A stretch of DNA of 56,942 nucleotides from Elusimicrobiaceae bacterium (GTDB lineage: Bacteria; Elusimicrobiota; Elusimicrobia; Elusimicrobiales; Elusimicrobiaceae): contig JAFXGO010000033.1 of the NCBI GenBank assembly GCA_017520185.1, forward strand, positions 1-56,942. Direction: 5' to 3'. Below the pieces are notes generated by a model. It was not told where the DNA came from and ran no database searches. It saw nothing but the letters and a program-made list of their open reading frames with translations. This document shows positions 2,776-56,942 of this stretch, piece after piece (positions within the stretch are counted from its first letter, which is position 1; every line of letters begins with the position of its first letter). Made by a program: the position numbers and the translations under genes.

Positions 2776-2891
2776 ATTTTTATTTTATCAAATTCGGCAG
2801 GCAGGCAGGTCTAATCCATAAAAAAGGAAGAAAAAAGAGATAAAAATCATTATATTGTAGGGGCAGGTGGAGTTTATAAAAGGGGGAAATT

Positions 2892-3212
2892 ATGACGATT
2901 ACATATGTAGACGATAAAAATTTTGACAGAGAGGTTGCTACTTTTCAACATCCTAAAATAGTGGTGTTTTCAGCCGATTGGTGCCCACATTGTCACCGTA
3001 TGATGCCTGTGTTGGAAGAAGTAGCCAAACGGTATAACGGAAAAGCTAAAATGTTTTTGGTTAATGTGACGCAGTCACCCAAAGCAGCTGCCAAGTATTC
3101 GGTTCGGGGGGTACCGACGATGCTCTTTTTTCGAGATGGAAAACATTTTTCCCAATTAGTGGGGGAGGCTCCTATTACATCGATTGAAGATAACATCAAA
3201 GCGATACTGTAA
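2892..3212 (+). CDS. trxA: Thioredoxin
   Basis: A 106-residue cytosolic thioredoxin with one thioredoxin fold and no signal peptide. The active site is W-C-P-H-C (Cys31, Cys34), with Pro-His between the cysteines instead of the usual Gly-Pro; this is closer to DsbA/glutaredoxin-like dipeptides and may shift the redox potential. The cis-proline loop RGVPT (Pro75) is intact. A strong AGGGGG ribosome binding site lies 5 bases before the ATG. It is transcribed divergently from fmt and appears monocistronic. The general function, thiol-disulfide exchange, is secure; the specific partners are not visible. Confidence 0.93.
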   Translation: MTITYVDDKNFDREVATFQHPKIVVFSADWCPHCHRMMPVLEEVAKRYNGKAKMFLVNVTQSPKAAAKYSVRGVPTMLFFRDGKHFSQLVGEAPITSIEDNIKAIL

Positions 3213-3326: not shown

Positions 3327-4568
3327 ATGTCTTTACCTCAAGAATTTATAGATTATACTGCCAAACTGTTCGGGCCTGAACGCTGGCAAAACTACTTGGA
3401 TTCTTTTGCCCAAGAAGTGCCGGTAAGCATTCGCTTTAACAGGTGGAAACATCATGGAGAAATGTTGACAGAGTCAACACCTGTTGCTTGGTGTCAAGAA
3501 GGCTTTTGGCTCAAAGAACGACCCAATTTTACCTTAGATCCTTTGTTGCATGCGGGGGTGTATTATGTGCAGGAATCCGGCTCTATGTTTTTGGACCATG
3601 TTTTGCGCCATTTATTAGATAAGCCGGTGAGTGCTTTGGACTTGTGCGCAGCACCCGGTGGAAAATCTACCTTAATGCGGGCGGCTTTGCCTGAAGGCTC
3701 TGTGCTTGTCAGTAATGAAATAGATCGTCGCAGAGCCAATATTTTATTGGAAAATATTTTAAAGCAAGGTCACCCGGATGTAGTGGTCACGCATAATCCG
3801 CCGAAAGACTTTTCAAAAACAAGTTTAATGTTTGATGTGATTTTAGCCGATGTCCCTTGTTCCGGAGAGGGATTATTTCGGCGAGATTTGGCCACCGCCA
3901 AAGAGTGGAGTGTGCAAGGGGTAAAGTTCTGCCAAGAGCGCCAACGTCAGATTTTGCGTGATATTTGGCCTTGCCTTCGAAGTGGCGGGCTGTTAATTTA
4001 CAGTACATGCACCTTTAATTTACTTGAAAATGAAGAAAATGTACGATGGATAGCGGAGGAGTTGGGGGCGGAAGTTTTACCTATTGTTGTGCAAGAAGAA
4101 TGGAATATTACGGGTAGTTTGTTGGAGGGGTGGAACGGGCCGGTTTATCGCTTTATTCCCGGAACTACGCGAAGTGAAGGCCTTTTTATGGCCGCACTTC
4201 GTAAAAAGGGGGGAGATTTTGATATGGGCACCTTGCCTGCCTCTTTAAAAACGCAAATTAAAAAATATCCTTTTATTCATTTGCTATCAGATGGCACGCC
4301 TCAACCGGAAATGAAAGGAAAAGAGGCTCTTCCGTCGGTGGCGCAGGCCCTTTCTTTAACTATGTCGGAAAATACGTATCCCAAAGTGGAACTTTCTTTA
4401 GAGCAAGCACGCCGTTATTTGCATAGAGAGTCTTTTGCTTTGCCTTCGGGTACTCCGCTTGGATTTGTGCTGGTTTGTTATCAATCTCATCCCTTAGGAT
4501 TTATGAAAAATGTCGGCACACGTGCCAATAATCTCTATCCTAAAAATTGGGCTATTCTTAATTTGTAA
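3327..4568 (+). CDS. rsmF: RsmF/NSUN-type rRNA cytosine-C5 methyltransferase, full-length copy
   Basis: A SAM-dependent RNA m5C methyltransferase of the Nol1/Nop2/Sun family, 413 residues. The N-terminal RNA-binding part (1-76) is followed by the SAM site LDLCAAPGGKST (105-116). Motif IV ADVPCSGEG carries Cys178, and motif VI YSTCT carries the catalytic Cys228. The region after about 285 matches the RsmF-type C-terminal extension. The target is probably 16S rRNA, by analogy with RsmF (C1407). A truncated paralogue lies 3 kb downstream (7543-8607), and most base differences between the two are synonymous. A TATAAT-type -10 lies near 3290. The ribosome binding site is weak. Confidence 0.9.
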   Translation: MSLPQEFIDYTAKLFGPERWQNYLDSFAQEVPVSIRFNRWKHHGEMLTESTPVAWCQEGFWLKERPNFTLDPLLHAGVYYVQESGSMFLDHVLRHLLDKPVSALDLCAAPGGKSTLMRAALPEGSVLVSNEIDRRRANILLENILKQGHPDVVVTHNPPKDFSKTSLMFDVILADVPCSGEGLFRRDLATAKEWSVQGVKFCQERQRQILRDIWPCLRSGGLLIYSTCTFNLLENEENVRWIAEELGAEVLPIVVQEEWNITGSLLEGWNGPVYRFIPGTTRSEGLFMAALRKKGGDFDMGTLPASLKTQIKKYPFIHLLSDGTPQPEMKGKEALPSVAQALSLTMSENTYPKVELSLEQARRYLHRESFALPSGTPLGFVLVCYQSHPLGFMKNVGTRANNLYPKNWAILNL

Positions 4569-7542: not shown

Positions 7543-8607
7543 GTGCAGATAGTACAAAAAAAAGCACTTCGTAGGAAGTGCCTTTTTAAATGGTCGGGGG
7601 TGTATTATGTGCAGGAAGCCGGATCTATGTTTTTGGACCATGTATTGCGCCATTTGGTTACAACTCCTGTCAGCGCGTTAGATTTGTGTGCTGCTCCCGG
7701 TGGAAAATCTACTTTAATGCGTGCGGCTTTGCCGGAAGGGTCGGTGCTTGTGAGCAATGAAATAGACCGCCGTCGTGCCAATATTTTACTGGAAAATATT
7801 CAAAAGCAAGGTCACCCCGATGTATTGGTGACGCATAATCCGCCGAAAGATTTTGCCAAAACAAATATCATGTTTGATGTCATTTTGACGGATGTCCCTT
7901 GTTCGGGAGAAGGACTCTTTCGCCGAGATGAGACCGCTACCAAAGAATGGAGCCCTGCCAATGTGCAATTTTGCCAAGAGCGCCAACGCCAAATTTTGCG
8001 TGATATTTGGCCTTATCTTTGCAGTGGCGGTTTGCTCATTTATAGCACATGTATGTATAATCTGGCAGAAAATGAAGAAAACGTACGTTGGATAAGCCAA
8101 GAGTTGGGGGCAGAGATTTTATCAGTACCCACAGAGGCGGACTGGAAGATTACCAAGAGCTTGCTAGCGGGGTGGGACAAACAGGTGTACCGCTTTATCT
8201 CCGGTAATACTCATACGGAAGGGTTGTTTATGGCAATACTTCGCAAAAAAGGCGAAGAAGAAAGAGCGACTTTGCCGACCGGACTGCGAAAACAAATTCA
8301 AAAATTTCCTTTTATTCATTTGCTCTCAGACGGTTTGGCTCAACCGGAGCAGAAAGGAAAAGAGCTTATTCCGTCTATTGCACAGGCTCTTTCTATAGCT
8401 GAAAATAAAAAAGATTTCCCCAAAATAGAGCTTTCCTTAGAGCAGGCTCGTCTTTATTTAAACCGTCAATCTTTTGCTTTGCCTACCGGTACTGAAAGAG
8501 GGTTTGTATTGGTTAGTTTTCAGGGGAAGGCACTGGGGTTTATGAAAAATATAGGTCCTCGTGCCAATAATCTCTATCCTAAAAATTGGGCCATTCGCAG
8601 TTTGTAA
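7543..8607 (+). CDS. N-terminally truncated RsmF-type methyltransferase paralogue
   Basis: From the codons after 7600 this frame encodes a close paralogue of the methyltransferase at 3327-4568, but the first ~76 residues (the N-terminal RNA-binding part) are absent. The SAM site LDLCAAPGGKST, the DVPCSGEG motif and the catalytic YSTC motif are all kept, as is the full C-terminal part. Upstream of the junction the sequence is a tRNA-Pro 3' end and terminator, so the first ~18 codons of the open frame are not ancestral. Possible starts are GTG 7543, GTG 7609 (8 bases after GGGGG) or ATG 7627. The two copies differ mostly at synonymous positions, so the domain was under selection before or after truncation. 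It may be a recent pseudogene or a reduced active enzyme. Confidence 0.75.
   Translation: MQIVQKKALRRKCLFKWSGVYYVQEAGSMFLDHVLRHLVTTPVSALDLCAAPGGKSTLMRAALPEGSVLVSNEIDRRRANILLENIQKQGHPDVLVTHNPPKDFAKTNIMFDVILTDVPCSGEGLFRRDETATKEWSPANVQFCQERQRQILRDIWPYLCSGGLLIYSTCMYNLAENEENVRWISQELGAEILSVPTEADWKITKSLLAGWDKQVYRFISGNTHTEGLFMAILRKKGEEERATLPTGLRKQIQKFPFIHLLSDGLAQPEQKGKELIPSIAQALSIAENKKDFPKIELSLEQARLYLNRQSFALPTGTERGFVLVSFQGKALGFMKNIGPRANNLYPKNWAIRSL
7556..7600 (-). repeat. tRNA-Pro 3'-end plus terminator remnant, copy 2, at the gene truncation junction
   Basis: Read on the minus strand: CCCCGACCA, then TTTAAAAAGGCACTTCC, then the matching GGAAGTGC arm and a T-run. CCCCGACCA is exactly the 3' end of both tRNA-Pro genes at 13.9-14.1 kb. 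The run of five C/G bases is directly joined to codons of the truncated methyltransferase; the intact copy also has GGGGG at that spot, so the join may be a microhomology recombination. Confidence 0.75.
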
Positions 8608-22573: not shown

Positions 22574-22616
22574 AAAGGTGTAGTTTATATATTACCTAGC
22601 AACAAAGGGGGAAAAC

Positions 22617-23417
22617 ATGAAGAGGGGTATTACAGTAGTGACTGCGCTGGTATTATTAGCCGGCGTTTGTGTGGCGCAAACCACATCTAATCCTGCGAAA
22701 GAACGTATTATCAAAACGGATACGACTACGGTGTATGATGTGTCTACCACCAATAAAAGAGGTACCACCGAATATGGCATAGTGGAGCAAACGCAGACTA
22801 CGCCTAAAGGGGGGACTCGCCTAGTCAGTCAAATGGAATATAGTGATTTCACTCCCAGCAAAATGGCTGTAGCCAATGCTAAAAAAGGTGAAATCTCTTT
22901 GGGCTTTGGCATGAGCCAATCCTATAGCAAAGACAAACACGGCACCCATTTTGCCGATTTGGGAATGGGTGGCAACGCGCAGATTTTGTTCCGTACCAGC
23001 GAACGTTTGTCCTTAGGTTTGGATTATATGCTTTTGATGCCGCATGATAATAAAGGGAAAGACTACTCTTATGAAAAACTTCGTTTAAACGGAGTTGCTT
23101 TTGCCGGTAAATTTACCTTTAATCCGTTGGATCGGTTAAATTTCTATGTTCCGATGGGTGTCGGTATGGCGCAAGTACGCTTGAAAGGTTATGGTGATCG
23201 GGGCGGTGTCTATACCTCTGAAAGCCGCGACAAGTGGGGTTTGGATATGTTTGCCGGTTTGGGTATGCAATATAACTTGAGCGAAACAACTTTCTTAGGA
23301 TTGGAATATCGTTATGTGGTGGCATTTGTCAACTCTGATGAATTGAACCGCTACTACGGCAAGGGACATTATTTGCAATTTCATAATGCTTTCCTGCGCT
23401 TAGGTATGAGATTCTAA
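22617..23417 (+). CDS. Outer-membrane beta-barrel protein
   Basis: A 266-residue protein with a signal peptide ending VCVAQ and a barrel-type body from about residue 95: amphipathic strands of alternating aromatic and polar residues (GEISLGFGMSQSY, LSLGLDYMLLMP, TFLGLEYRYVVAF) and a terminal aromatic RLGMRF, the usual signal for BAM-mediated insertion. About 70 residues at the N-terminus form a periplasmic or linker segment rich in Thr. It resembles OmpW/OmpA-like small barrels, but the subfamily is not clear. A strong AGGGGG site lies 5 bases before the ATG. Confidence 0.75.
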   Translation: MKRGITVVTALVLLAGVCVAQTTSNPAKERIIKTDTTTVYDVSTTNKRGTTEYGIVEQTQTTPKGGTRLVSQMEYSDFTPSKMAVANAKKGEISLGFGMSQSYSKDKHGTHFADLGMGGNAQILFRTSERLSLGLDYMLLMPHDNKGKDYSYEKLRLNGVAFAGKFTFNPLDRLNFYVPMGVGMAQVRLKGYGDRGGVYTSESRDKWGLDMFAGLGMQYNLSETTFLGLEYRYVVAFVNSDELNRYYGKGHYLQFHNAFLRLGMRF

Positions 23418-40017: not shown

Positions 40018-40163
40018 AATGCTTCAAAAAAGGTTATTTTTTGTTTTTCTTCCGTCGATGAAAAATCCCCCTCTTTTTATCTAATTACTTTTTAGCGTTG
40101 TGCAGTTCTCCCGTTAATATTAATTTTAGATTAGCAGTAAAAGTTCTATTTTACGGGGGTAAA

Positions 40164-41390
40164 ATGAATATGAAACATGCAGCATGGGGCCTGATGGCCG
40201 TTTGCTTATTTTTGAGTTCTGCCACGTATGCGCAGAATGCTACGCAACACACCGCCAAACACCACCGTCGTTTGGCTCAGCAACAAGAGCTTCATCAATC
40301 TCACCCTTATTCTTTCGGGCAGGATTATTTACAGATGAAACAAGACTTGGCTGACAAAACAGGTATCCAATACGGTTTGGATATCAGTTATCTATTACAG
40401 CGCGGTGCGCCCAACGGTAAACAAACCGCCATTCAGGGGTACTATTATCCTTACATCACTTGGGATGTGTTTAAAGACACATTTTTGGGCTCGGGTCAAA
40501 TAAATGCCAACTACAATTTAATCCGTTATTGGGGCAGTAATGGCACCACTTTACAAAACCGTTTGGGTTTGGCCTCTGCGCCCAACGACTATACAGAAAA
40601 CGAAGAGATTTTTTCTCAGTTTTCCTACACACACACTTTGCCCAATCATTTGGATTGGCTTTCTGTGACGGTGGGTCAATTTCCGCTGTATAACTTTGAT
40701 GGTGGTAATTATTTGGACAATCAACAAACGGCTCTGTTAAATTTTGCCATGTCGCAAAACGCGTCTTCTACCTATCCCAGTGCCAGTTTTGGCGGATATG
40801 TGCAAGCGGCACCGGGCGATTGGACCTTTGCCGCCGGTTGGCAGGACGGGCAAAATATCAGCGGTCAAAATATACAATTAAACGATGCTTTTGACGGCAG
40901 ATACACTTGGTTCGGCTCTGCTTCTTACGCGCCCACCATTGCCGGATTAGGAGCAGGTCAATACAGTTTTTTGTATTACTATCAGCCGGCAGTAAAAGAG
41001 CAAGACGAAACCTCACGCGGTTGGTCAGTGAATATAAGCCAAAATTTGGGTGAAAAGTGGGCTCTTTCCGCACGCGCCAACGGTTCTGACGGGCATATTG
41101 CTCCTATAAAGAAATCTTTTGTCTTAGCAGCCAGTTTGCTTAATCCGTTGGATAGAAATACCAACGATGCCATCACCTTAGGTGTAGCTTATAACAGAAC
41201 GGATAAAAAAGCCTTAGGTTATCCGGCTGAATTTAAAAATAGCGAAATGGCGGTAGAATTGCAATGGGTGTGGGGTATTGGCAAATTGATGACCATTACA
41301 CCGGATATTCAGTTCTATCCCAAGTCTGCGGCAGGGAACGGTAATTCTTTTACCACTGTCGCCAGTTTACGCACAACAATTATGCTGTAA
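40164..41390 (+). CDS. aaxA: OprB-type carbohydrate-selective porin, AaxA-like
   Basis: A 408-residue outer-membrane porin with a signal peptide (hydrophobic to ATYAQ), a His/Gln-rich spacer and an OprB-like barrel: [49 protein letters not shown], and a C-terminal barrel strand ending RTTIML. In Chlamydia, AaxA is an OprB-family porin that lets arginine enter through the outer membrane and is encoded with AaxB and AaxC. The gene here is followed directly by homologues of both, in the same order. The ATG at 40164 has GGGGG upstream. Arginine or agmatine is therefore the likely permeant, by context. Confidence 0.8.
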
Positions 41391-42034: not shown

Positions 42035-42059
42035 AACTAAAATAGTTTTTGGGGGATTT

Positions 42060-43535
42060 ATGGGAGAAAAAAATCACAACACCGCCAATGCAAGTGCGGT
42101 CAAAAAAATGGGAGTCATAGGACTTGCCTGTATTGTGATCAGTTCTATGGTTGGGGGCGGGGTGTTCTCCCTCCCCCAAAACATGGCAGCCGGTGCCAGC
42201 GCGGGGGCAGTTATTTTGGCGTGGGTGATTACCGGTATCGGTATTTATTTTATCGCCAATACCTTTAGCATACTTTCACGCGTAAAGCCGGATTTGACGG
42301 CCGGTATTTATATGTACGCGCGAGAAGGCTTTGGCCCGTATGCAGGCTTTACCATCGGGTGGGGTTATTGGTTGTGCCAAATCTTTGGTAATGTGGGGTA
42401 TGCCGTTATTACAATGGACGCATTGAATTACTTTTTCCCCCCTTATTTTCAGGGCGGAAACAACTTGTGGTCCATTGTGGGCGGATCTGTGCTGATATGG
42501 GTGTTTAATTTTGTCGTCTTGCGCGGAGTACGGCAGGCCGCAATTATGAATATTATCGGAACAATTGGCAAATTAGTACCGCTTTTATGGTTTATTTTAG
42601 CCTTGCTTTTGAGTTTTAATTTTGACAAGTTTGATACCAACTTTTGGGGCAATCTTGCCGAAAACGGCAAAAGTTTAGGAGGATTGGGTACCCAATTAAA
42701 GAGTACAATGCTGGTGACGCTTTGGGCATTTATCGGTATTGAAGGCGCGGTAGTAATGTCTAACAGGGCCCGTAGCCAAAAAGACGTCAGCCGTGCTACT
42801 TTGTTGGGATTTTTGGGTTGTTTGGTGATTTATATAGGGCTTTCCGTCTTGCCGTTTGGATTTATGACACAGGCCGAAATTGCCGCTGTGCCCAACCCTT
42901 CCACCGCCGGTGTACTTGCCAAGTTGGTCGGCCCTTGGGGAGCGTGGCTAATGAATATAGGCCTTTTGATCGCGGTGCTTTCTTCGTGGTTGGCTTGGAC
43001 AATGATCACCGCCGAAATTCCGCAGGCTGCGGCAGAAAATGGCACATTTCCTAAGCAATTTGCCAGAGAAAATAAAAATGGTGCACCGTCTGTCTCTTTG
43101 TGGGTGACGAGTATCCTGATGCAACTAGCCATTTTGATGGTTTATTTTTCTAACAATGCTTGGAACACGATGCTCTCTATTACAGGGGTGATGGTGTTGC
43201 CTGCCTACATTTTCAGTACGGCTTATTTGTGGAAACTGACAGAAGACGGAGAATTTGCCAAATTAGCCCAAAAAGGCCGTGCTGCGGCTTTATTTACCGC
43301 TACGGTAGGTACTTTATACGGTTTATGGCTGGTGTATGCCGCAGGGATAAAATATTTATTCTTGGCGGTTATTTTCTTGGCCTTAGGCATACCGGTTTTT
43401 GTGTGGGCACGTAAGCAACAATCGGACGGACAAAACGTATTTAGCGGGAAAGGAGAAGTAGTTTTTATGCTGCTTTTGGCACTGTGTGCATTGGTGGCTA
43501 TTTATGTGTTTGCCAGAGGGTTGGTGAGCCTATAA
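42060..43535 (+). CDS. aaxC: Arginine/agmatine antiporter, AaxC-like (APC superfamily)
   Basis: A 491-residue inner-membrane exchanger with about 12 helices. The unwound helix 1 motif [20 protein letters not shown] is the APC signature. Helix 6-7 region [20 protein letters not shown] carries the Glu-rich gate region of basic amino-acid antiporters. Family members AdiC, ArcD-type and AaxC swap arginine for agmatine or ornithine. The context (porin and arginine decarboxylase in the same operon) points to arginine/agmatine. GGGGGA upstream of the ATG. Together the three genes would form an arginine-dependent acid resistance or arginine-scavenging cycle. Confidence 0.88.
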
Positions 43536-54640: not shown

Positions 54641-56533
54641 TTATTCGGCTGTTTCGCTGTCTTCTTCTGCTGCTTCAGCAGGTAAAGAAGTGGCCTCGTC
54701 CCATGCTTTTAATTTAGCATCTATTTGTTCTTGGATTTTGGACTCGCGTTTGGCTTTGGCTTCTTCCAACTGTTTTTGTAAAGCAGCCAATTCCTCATCC
54801 GTTTCAGTAATTTCTTGTTCTACCTGTTCGCGGATTTCTTCCCGTTTTTTGGCTAATTCTTCTTCTTTAAGAATTTTAATTTCTTCTTCTTGTTGTTTTA
54901 ATTCTTCTTCCAATGCCTGAACTTCGGAAAGTTTCTGCTCCGCTACGGCTTGCGCTTCTTCGATGAGTCTTTGGCGTTGCAATTCTTGTTCTTCACGCAG
55001 TCTTTGTTGTTCTTGTTCCGCTAAGGCTTGGGCAGCGGCGCGGGCTCTTAATTGTTCTTGAAGCAATGTTTTTTTCTTTACGTTCAAGACACTCATAACG
55101 GAAGAATTAGGCATTAATTCTTCTGCTAAAACAAAGGCCGTTTTACCATCTTTATTGGTGGCGGTTAAATCTACATCCTGTTGAATTAACAATAAGGCGG
55201 CCTTGCTGTTGAGGTTTTTAATGGCATGCATCAAAGCAGTATTGCCGTCTTTATCCTGCAGGTTTAAATCTGCTCCTTTTTCTATTAACCACTCTAAGGC
55301 TTGCGTATTGCCCTTGGAAGTAGTGTACATAACAGCCGTTTTGCCGTTGGTATCTGTGGTATCGATAGAAAAGTAATTGGCGGCTAAATGTTCCATAGCC
55401 GGTACGCTTTTTCCTTCGGCGGCGGCGATGAAAATATTTTTACCTTTGGCATCAATCACATTAATGTCGGCATTCAGGCGCAAAAGTTGGCGAATTAAGG
55501 CAGTTTGACCATTTTCCGCCGCATAGAATAAGGCTGTTCTGCCGGTATTATCTTTTAAGTTAATATCTGCTCCGTTGCGCACTAAGGTTTGGGCGGCTTC
55601 TTCTTTGCCGGAAGCTGCGGCAGCACTCAAAGCAGAGAAGCCGTTGGTCGGGTTTTGATAGTCCGGGTTGGCTTTATATTTGAGTAAAACTTTAATGTTG
55701 TTAATGTGGCCCTTTTGTGCTGCATAAATTAACGGTGTGTTTCCGGAGTTGTCGGGCAAGTTGACAGCGCGGTTGTTGAGTTTGACTAAGGTTTCCGTCA
55801 ATTTGGGATCATCGGAAGACATCGCATGCAACAAAGCCGTTTTGCCCAAATCATCTTTAGCGGTTGGGTCGGCTCCGTTTTCTAAAAGGTTCTGTGCAAT
55901 TTCTCTATGGCCGGCAGCGGCAGCGGAAATTAAAGGGGTCACTCCATAGCTGGAAGTTAAATTGACGGAAGCACCGCCTTCTTCTACCAACAATTTAACA
56001 ATGGCTAAGTGGCCTTTTTCAGCGGCAATGGTTAACGGGGTGATGCCGGCATAGTTGCGTTCATTCACGTCTACGTTGGCATAGATTAATGTGCGTACCC
56101 GATCAGAATCACCCTGTTTAATAGCACGTACCAAAGAGGTGTCATACACATATTTGGTTTTGGCTAATTCTCTTTTGCCGACGGTCGTCCCTTCATATTT
56201 TTGTTTTTCTTGGCCAAATACTTTACCGCGATAAATATCTTTGGAAGATTTACCCAATACAGTACCTTTGTATTTTTCTTTACTGGTACCATATGCAGCG
56301 CGTTTGTCAGGTGAATCCACCCCCAACACGCTACCTCTGTAAATATCTCCCGGTATATTGCTACGCTTGGCTTCTTTTAAAGCGATATCTTTTTTGTTTT
56401 TAGTATCTGTGGCGGGTTCTAACCCTTTAATATAGACAGGTTTCCCGTCCACATAGATAATGTCCGGTTGTTGAGCAAAAACAGCCGGAGTAAGCAACAA
56501 GGCAAAAGCTGCTGTTAAATGTAATTTGTTCAT
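54641..56533 (-). CDS. Exported ankyrin-repeat protein with a charged coiled-coil tail
   Basis: A 630-residue protein with a signal peptide (MNKLHLTAAFALLLTPAVFAQ). Residues ~40-120 contain several short repeats (YRGSVLG, YKGTVLG, YRGKVFG, YEGTTVG). About ten ankyrin repeats follow from 135 to 475 (G-x-TPL/ALxxAAxxGH pattern). The last ~150 residues are Glu/Gln/Lys-rich coiled coil. Exported ankyrin proteins mediate protein contacts; whether this one stays in the periplasm or reaches a host is unknown. The ATG at 56533 has GGAGGAAATT upstream, preferred over a start four codons earlier. Confidence 0.88.
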   Translation of the reverse strand: MNKLHLTAAFALLLTPAVFAQQPDIIYVDGKPVYIKGLEPATDTKNKKDIALKEAKRSNIPGDIYRGSVLGVDSPDKRAAYGTSKEKYKGTVLGKSSKDIYRGKVFGQEKQKYEGTTVGKRELAKTKYVYDTSLVRAIKQGDSDRVRTLIYANVDVNERNYAGITPLTIAAEKGHLAIVKLLVEEGGASVNLTSSYGVTPLISAAAAGHREIAQNLLENGADPTAKDDLGKTALLHAMSSDDPKLTETLVKLNNRAVNLPDNSGNTPLIYAAQKGHINNIKVLLKYKANPDYQNPTNGFSALSAAAASGKEEAAQTLVRNGADINLKDNTGRTALFYAAENGQTALIRQLLRLNADINVIDAKGKNIFIAAAEGKSVPAMEHLAANYFSIDTTDTNGKTAVMYTTSKGNTQALEWLIEKGADLNLQDKDGNTALMHAIKNLNSKAALLLIQQDVDLTATNKDGKTAFVLAEELMPNSSVMSVLNVKKKTLLQEQLRARAAAQALAEQEQQRLREEQELQRQRLIEEAQAVAEQKLSEVQALEEELKQQEEEIKILKEEELAKKREEIREQVEQEITETDEELAALQKQLEEAKAKRESKIQEQIDAKLKAWDEATSLPAEAAEEDSETAE

Positions 56534-56686: not shown

Positions 56687-56715
56687 TTGCTTTTTTGATA
56701 CGATGGTTGTATGAT
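56687..56715 (+). promoter_or_regulatory. Promoter of the candidate C-rich small RNA
   Basis: TTGCTT (56687-56692), a 17-base spacer and TATGAT (56710-56715). The start is predicted near 56722. An A/T-rich tract lies directly upstream. Confidence 0.6.
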
Positions 56716-56721
56716 AAAGGT

Positions 56722-56806
56722 ATAGATTTCTCCCCCAGAACCTTTCGACATACCCCCCGAATGGTTCTGATAAAGAGCAGGGCAACATCCCCCTGCTCTT
56801 TTTTTT
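56722..56806 (+). ncRNA. Candidate C-rich small RNA with two CCCCC loops
   Basis: An ~85-nt predicted transcript in the gene-free 400 bases at the right end. Hairpin 1 (56736-56769) has stem CAGAACC / GGTTCTG plus TTCG / CGAA and loop ACATACCCCC. The terminator hairpin (56772-56801) has stem AAAGAGCAGGG / CCCTGCTCTTT and its loop runs into ACATCCCCC, then T8. A third run, CTCCCCC, precedes hairpin 1. Repeated C-rich single-stranded loops are typical of small RNAs that pair with Shine-Dalgarno sequences; many genes here have GGGGG-type sites. No open frame. Function is inference. Confidence 0.6.
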
Positions 56807-56825: not shown

Positions 56826-56855
56826 AAAACCCCCACTAAAAGCGGGGGTTTTAAA
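56826..56855. terminator. Terminator for convergent transcripts near the right edge
   Basis: AACCCCC / GGGGGTT stem around ACTAAAAGC with A-run and T-run. Confidence 0.8.
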
Positions 56856-56862
56856 TTTTTCT

Positions 56863-56942
56863 ATTTCTTACAAAGAAATAGCGCTTACCGGGTAGGTGCC
56901 GACTATGCTTTGCATTCTGCCCTACGCATTTCTTACAAAGAA
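56863..56942. repeat. Direct repeat with a 65-base period at the window edge
   Basis: ATTTCTTACAAAGAA occurs at 56863-56877 and 56928-56942, exactly 65 bases apart; the word is itself nearly palindromic. The window ends inside the second copy, so an array or the 3' end of another gene may continue beyond it. On the minus strand the stretch between has a short coding-like frame ending SAISL-stop. Confidence 0.5.

What the first reader, a model, noticed from the sequence alone, without database searches (positions are those of the whole stretch)
56687..56806. Compact small RNA with two loops showing the same ACAT(A)CCCCC motif
A promoter (17-base spacer), a hairpin with loop ACATACCCCC and a terminator hairpin with loop ACATCCCCC lie within 120 bases and no gene is present. 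A third CTCCCCC run is in the leader. Presenting C-runs in loops is the known design of regulators that block GGGGG ribosome binding sites. Many start sites in this window are GGGGG-type (trxA, 22617, aaxA, aaxC), so it could be a broad post-transcriptional regulator.
Basis: partly seen in the sequence, partly recalled or inferred. Interest (0 to 1): 0.7.

Follow-up and report, generated by a model that had tools for sequence, protein, structure and literature searches.

The report
New C-loop small RNA in Elusimicrobiaceae
A roughly 85-nucleotide small RNA gene, conserved across a family of gut bacteria that lack the usual RNA chaperone Hfq, holds a run of cytosines in a hairpin loop and probably acts by sticking to the guanine-rich ribosome-binding sites of messenger RNAs, though its expression and targets are untested.

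Summary
The element is real and more than chance. Window 56687-56806 holds a sigma-70-type promoter (TTGCTT-17-TATGAT), a C-rich leader, a 12-position hairpin with loop ACAUACCCCC and an intrinsic terminator (fold z = -6.05). It is an unannotated RNA gene of Elusimicrobiaceae: 53 of 66 genomes of the window's genus plus members of three other genera, one strong locus each. Across genera the stem is rewritten by compensatory changes (14 pairs; 0/500 shuffles reach this) while the loop UNACCCCC, C-rich leader, promoter spacing and a terminator stay. One-base indels exclude a coding reason. Neighbours are mostly conserved: divergent ankyrin gene, sRNA, ferredoxin, feoAB. No Rfam family matches. 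Hfq was found in none of 90 family genomes.

About 5% of genes have GGGGG there, the four named genes do, and enolase keeps it in 23/30 genomes. However, genome-wide duplex scoring showed no excess over permuted controls, and GGGGG sites are hardly shared between genera. The terminator C-run is mostly paired and not conserved, so 'the same motif in two loops' is not the conserved feature. Closest analogue: actinobacterial 6C/B11; not a member of that family.

The parts
56687..56715 (+). Promoter of the sRNA: -35 TTGCTT (56687-56692), 17-base spacer, -10 TATGAT (56710-56715)
   Evidence: sequence; TTG -35 and -10 with 17 (33) or 18 (4) base spacing found in 37 of 41 relatives
56722..56806 (+). 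sRNA gene, predicted transcript of about 85 nt (start inferred from the -10, end from the U tract)
   Evidence: fold z -6.05; covariance models R1 and R2 find it in 53/66 genus genomes and three further genera
56730..56736 (+). C-rich leader CUCCCCC, single-stranded except its last C
   Evidence: C-run kept in most members; mean unpaired probability mostly 0.6-0.8 in the genus, lower in some members
56736..56769 (+). Hairpin 1: 7 bp, one mismatch, 4 bp; loop ACAUACCCCC at 56748-56757
   Evidence: compensatory changes across genera; loop Cs unpaired about 1.0
56772..56806 (+). Intrinsic terminator, 11-bp stem, loop CAACAUCC (56783-56790), U tract 56799-56806
   Evidence: every one of 9 modelled pairs has double changes across members; loop sequence not conserved
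56826..56852 (-). Second terminator hairpin between the sRNA and the converging ferredoxin end
54641..56533 (-). Divergent ankyrin-repeat secreted protein gene, the most constant neighbour (SD is GGAGG, so not a GGGGG candidate)
56862..56942 (-). 3' end of the ferredoxin gene, cut by the contig end
   Evidence: minus-strand reading ...VGTYPVSAISL* against ...AGTCPVSAISL* of relatives
2882..2894 (+). Candidate target site: GGGGG SD of the thioredoxin-like gene 2892-3212
   Evidence: G079 best reciprocal hit also GGGGG
22607..22619 (+). Candidate target site: GGGGG SD of the outer-membrane beta-barrel gene 22617-23417
   Evidence: G079 best reciprocal hit also GGGGG
40155..40172 (+). Candidate target site: GGGGGUAAAA upstream of the OprB-type porin gene 40170-41390
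   Evidence: G079 best reciprocal hit also GGGGG
42051..42062 (+). Candidate target site: GGGGG SD of the amino-acid permease gene 42060-43535
   Evidence: G079 best reciprocal hit also GGGGG

Best explanation
The interval is a stand-alone small RNA gene of a so far undescribed family confined to Elusimicrobiaceae. SHOWN from sequence: a promoter, a covarying hairpin with an invariant C-run loop, and a covarying terminator, kept at a mostly conserved locus in four genera. INFERRED: it is transcribed as an RNA of about 85 nt whose single-stranded loop (UNACCCCC) and leader (UCCCCC or UACCC) pair with G-rich Shine-Dalgarno sequences (GGGGGU and GGGGGA type), block ribosome binding and lower translation of several mRNAs. 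This would happen without Hfq, which the family lacks. The terminator loop adds little.
For: Structure: z -6.05; genus alignment 0/500 shuffles on all five measures; 41 members in four genera, 97.6% of cells paired, 14 of 20 pairs with double changes, 0/500 shuffles. Loop ACCCCC invariant while stems are rewritten, and unpaired in essentially every fold. Promoter kept in 37/41. One strong locus per genome; synteny kept in g1, g12, g16 and partly g15. Not coding: 1-nt indels. GGGGG at the SD of 46/1053 and 28/593 ATG genes against 5 and 3 in control stretches. Four GGGGG window genes have GGGGG reciprocal hits in G079, 4/4 against 0.5 expected. Enolase GGGGG in 23/30 genomes. No Hfq in 90 genomes. 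Precedents with experiments: B11/6C C-loops pair with RBS G-tracts (PMC10470900), LhrC (PMC4132741).
Against: No transcript evidence. Real leader and loop segments do not score more start regions than permuted ones: 393 against 358, 94 against 77, 17 against 16. GGGGG is shared between genera in only 2 of 21 cases, 1.05 expected. Other SD words are also conserved within the genus, so conservation of GGGGG does not by itself show regulation. The gene finder's choice of starts favours SD-like words.
Confidence: 0.6

Rival explanations
1. The RNA acts mainly by binding a protein (regulator, RNase or RNA-binding protein) through the UNACCCCC loop and leader, as a sponge or scaffold, and not by pairing with mRNAs.
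For: The loop is invariant in sequence beyond the C-run (UNACCCCC in all members) and the innermost stem is nearly invariant; no genome-wide excess of duplex targets; targets not shared between genera.
Against: A single-stranded C-run at a free loop is the known design of SD-pairing sRNAs, and the organisms use GGGGG SDs. No GGA motifs for a CsrA-type sponge sit in the loops. The leader varies in sequence apart from its Cs.
Confidence: 0.2
2. It is a cis-acting leader or attenuator of the neighbouring ferredoxin or feoAB genes, the RNA being a prematurely terminated mRNA leader.
For: In g1, g12 and g16 feoAB lies on the same strand downstream, with ferredoxin between.
Against: The ferredoxin gene faces the opposite way in g1 and g16; the distance to feoAB is several hundred bases and varies; feoAB has its own conserved upstream palindromic stretch; in g15 feoAB lies on the other side or the neighbours differ altogether; a second terminator follows in the window.
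Confidence: 0.06
3. It is a pairing sRNA but with one or a few specific targets, chosen by longer pairing than the C-run, and not a broad regulator.
For: Most GGGGG sites share only five or six pairs with the RNA; longer matches are few, for example GGGGGUAAAA at four G102 genes including a pirin gene. Enolase keeps GGGGG in both genera.
Against: Leader and loop give two C-run sites, a layout typical of multi-target sRNAs.
Confidence: 0.12

Closest known systems
6C RNA / B11 (Rfam RF01066, Actinobacteria)
   Same: Short single-copy sRNA with C-runs in hairpin loops and an intrinsic terminator; C-loops pair with G tracts at ribosome-binding sites (PMC10470900); reported to work without RNA chaperones (title of Mai et al. 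2019, as cited there)
   Different: 6C has two stem-loops with about six Cs each; here one C-loop hairpin plus a C-rich leader. No match to the 6C model; other phylum; different stems and flanking genes
LhrC sRNAs (Listeria)
   Same: [quoted passage not shown] blocks translation by SD pairing; Hfq dispensable for lapB (PMC4132741)
   Different: LhrC is multicopy (five copies) and uses UCCC; here a single copy with ACCCCC/UCCCCC and no functional-looking terminator loop. No Rfam match
RepG (Helicobacter pylori)
   Same: sRNA with a C/U-rich loop that pairs with G repeats in mRNA leaders (PMC8295292)
   Different: RepG uses the terminator loop and long phase-variable G tracts well upstream of the RBS; here the first hairpin's loop and short G5 SD sites
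RsaE/RoxS and FsrA (Firmicutes)
   Same: C-rich single-stranded motifs aimed at SD sequences (UCCC motif, as reviewed in PMC4132741)
   Different: Different structure and phylum; the best RsaE score here, 20 bits against a gathering score of 79, is noise

Membership tests
6C RNA (RF01066) | Scores above the curated covariance-model cut-off | tested here: not met
   No RF01066 match even at E <= 10 in the interval, nor in eight representatives at gathering level
6C RNA (RF01066) | Two stem-loops, each typically with six Cs in the loop (PMC4046766) | tested here: not met
   One C-loop hairpin; the terminator loop C-run is mostly paired and not conserved
6C RNA (RF01066) | C-loops pair with G-rich ribosome-binding sites | not testable with these tools
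   Needs reporters; candidate sites only
LhrC | Rfam-level similarity and multiple near-identical copies | tested here: not met
   No Rfam match; one strong locus per genome
Hfq-dependent trans-encoded sRNA | Hfq encoded in the genome | tested here: not met
   PF17209 matches 0 of 90 family genomes while control genomes ring
Independent trans-acting sRNA gene (general kind) | Own promoter, conserved structure, own terminator, no coding capacity | tested here: met
Independent trans-acting sRNA gene (general kind) | Transcribed as a discrete small RNA | not testable with these tools
   No expression data at hand

The most novel reading that the evidence does not exclude
A chaperone-independent regulator of central energy and redox metabolism in Elusimicrobiaceae: one C-loop RNA, sited beside ferredoxin and feoAB, that tunes translation of enolase, 2-oxoacid:ferredoxin oxidoreductase subunits and outer-membrane or uptake proteins through GGGGG Shine-Dalgarno sites, so that the SD wording (GGGGG against GGAGG) sorts genes into regulated and unregulated classes.
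Probability: 0.15. Interest if true: 0.65.

Novelty: new member of a known kind. Interest (0 to 1): 0.45.

Why it matters
It appears to be an undescribed, well-supported sRNA family in Elusimicrobiota: no Rfam match, and the only open-licence paper found that mentions Elusimicrobia together with sRNA terms is about insertion sequences. Together with 6C and RepG it would be another independent case of C-run loops aimed at G-rich sites, here in bacteria where no Hfq was found, suggesting that short G-C seeds are a recurrent way to do without that chaperone. The compensatory-mutation test is simple in E. coli reporters.

Tried and rejected
Protein-coding reading: an open frame runs through the hairpin in several members but is broken by 1-nt indels in others. 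Known RNA family: none. Riboswitch or attenuator for ferredoxin or feoAB: orientation and distance vary. Mobile or plasmid element: no plasmid match, one strong locus per genome. Wider spread: exact-pattern hits in Paracoccus and a cyanobacterium are about what chance gives for 19 fixed bases in 257 Gb by my own estimate. Hits in family f2 at E 0.001-0.009 lack the UNACCCCC loop in the two that were read (L078, L079). Shared iron operator: no copy of the palindromic stretch before feoAB was seen by eye at the sRNA promoter; not tested statistically. RNAalifold on the MAFFT alignment gave a shifted fold for hairpin 1, because the stem hardly varies inside g1 and some rows were misaligned by one base; the cross-genus alignment resolves it.

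Full report
WHAT IS THERE. The window is contig 33 of a 1.4-Mb genome. The interval reads as reported: TTGCTT-17-TATGAT, leader AUAGAUUUCUCCCCC, hairpin 56736-56769 with loop ACAUACCCCC, terminator 56772-56801 and a U tract. Predicted energy is -41.1 kcal/mol against -21.3 +/- 3.3 in shuffles, z = -6.05.

CONSERVATION. blastn finds the element in 30 of the 60 relatives searched, all 30 in the window's own genus. A covariance model from 30 members (R1) finds it in 53 of 66 genus genomes at E <= 2e-9 and, at E 6e-8 to 9e-4, in other genera of the same family. Sequences from those genera keep the architecture but not the letters: g12 AGACCCUUCG / CGAAGGGAUCU; g15 CGGACAUCUUCG / CGAAGAUAUCCG; a second g15 group GAACUCUUCA / UGAGGAGUUC; g16 CCUUCG / CGAAGG; all with UUACCCCC or AUACCCCC in the loop. 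In the second g15 group the closing G-C became A-U, which shows that the sixth C of CCCCCC is a stem base and that five Cs are the conserved free run. Over 41 sequences 97.6% of pair cells pair, 14 of 20 pairs show double changes, in 101 cells; no shuffle reaches this and slid structures fall to 30-54%. That alignment was fitted to the structure, but the independent MAFFT alignment of the genus alone also beats all shuffles. A second model (R2) finds the same set plus one more g15 genome (G116). Weak hits in family f2 (E 0.001-0.009) look like chance; the two that were read lack the loop motif. Two other genera of the family (g13, g14, one genome each) gave no hit, and about half of the g15 genomes gave none.

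NOT CODING, NOT KNOWN. Close relatives differ by single-base insertions and deletions in leader, stem and spacer. Rfam has no match at gathering level for the window element or for eight representatives.

PROMOTER AND PLACE. 37 of 41 members have a TTG -35 and a -10 with 17 (33) or 18 (4) bases between; the g15 members have TTGACA-17-TATAGT or TTGACA-17-TATCAT only 9-10 bases before the modelled core. Some genus members carry extra sequence between the -10 and the C-rich leader that could form another hairpin. In g1, g12 and g16 the order is a divergent ankyrin-repeat gene, sRNA, ferredoxin (converging in g1 and g16, on the sRNA's strand in g12), feoAB. In part of g15 the ankyrin gene is kept and feoAB lies beyond it; in the rest of g15 the neighbours differ. 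The window ends inside what reads as the 3' end of the ferredoxin gene: the minus strand gives ...VGTYPVSAISL*, compared with ...AGTCPVSAISL* in relatives. The changing orientation and spacing argue against a cis-acting leader.

MECHANISM. What selection holds fixed is the loop ACCCCC and a C-rich leader; loop Cs are unpaired in nearly every prediction. The obvious partner is a G-run. The 16S tail is canonical, GGATCACCTCCTTT, so GGAGG is the perfect SD and GGGGG carries one wobble pair. Yet GGGGG sits in the SD position of 46/1053 ATG genes in G079 and 28/593 in the half of G102 that was read, against 5 and 3 in control stretches (simple gene finder, whose choice of starts favours SD-like words). 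Enolase has GGGGG in 23 of 30 genus genomes whose leaders have otherwise diverged, and in G102. These facts make SD blocking the most likely mode. Against it, permuted leader and loop segments score about as many start regions as the real ones, and GGGGG is hardly shared between genera (2 of 21, 1.05 expected). So the targets are largely lineage-specific, or few. Some GGGGG genes are redox or Fe-S linked (2-oxoacid:ferredoxin oxidoreductase subunits, cysteine desulfurase-type aminotransferase, pirin, flavodiiron-type protein), which would fit the ferredoxin-feoAB neighbourhood, but no enrichment test was possible. A Fur-family protein is encoded in the genome; no operator is evident at the sRNA promoter.

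CHAPERONE. The Hfq model matches 0 of 90 family genomes, while the same search rings in five control genomes. C-loop RNAs are known to work without it: B11/6C pairs its C loops with G tracts at ribosome-binding sites (PMC10470900, which also cites the chaperone-independence paper of Mai et al. 2019, not held here); LhrC does not need Hfq for its target lapB (PMC4132741); RepG pairs with G repeats (PMC8295292).

FAMILY. It works like 6C/B11 but fails both 6C tests that could be applied here (model match, two C-loop stem-loops), so it is filed as a separate, unnamed family of a known kind.

CONFIDENCE. That this is a real RNA gene: about 0.93. That it acts mainly by C-run pairing to G-rich SDs: about 0.6. 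That it is a broad regulator: about 0.25.

Noticed in passing
56862-56942 and L002:1640-1900: The ferredoxin 3' end seems to be partly duplicated: in L002 a stretch with its terminator and last codons occurs twice in tandem, and in the window ATTTCTTACAAAGAA occurs twice at the contig end (56863, 56928), which may be why the contig breaks there.
   Followed up: partly
L067, L069, L077, L080-L086, upstream of feoAB: A conserved imperfect palindrome precedes feoAB (AAAAGTAAGGAAAAACTAACTTTT in g1; AAGTTAGGTAAACCTTACTT in g16), possibly an operator of a DtxR-type iron regulator.
   Followed up: no
L208-L237, enolase leader: In most genus genomes a short hairpin of changing sequence sits directly 5' of the GGGGG SD of enolase (for example GGCCGCACGGCGGCC, TCTAGCCCTGTGCTGGA), suggesting a conserved leader structure.
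   Followed up: no
3567-4568 and 7609-8607: Two paralogous genes share the start context GGGGGTGTATTAT-GTG and a near-identical beginning MQE(S/A)GSMFLDHVLRHL: a local duplication whose true start may lie further upstream.
   Followed up: no
L011-L019, between the -10 and the core: Many genus members carry about 20 extra bases after the promoter that form a small hairpin (for example GTTTCCCAATAGAAAC), absent in the window's own clade; the transcript would be longer there.
   Followed up: no
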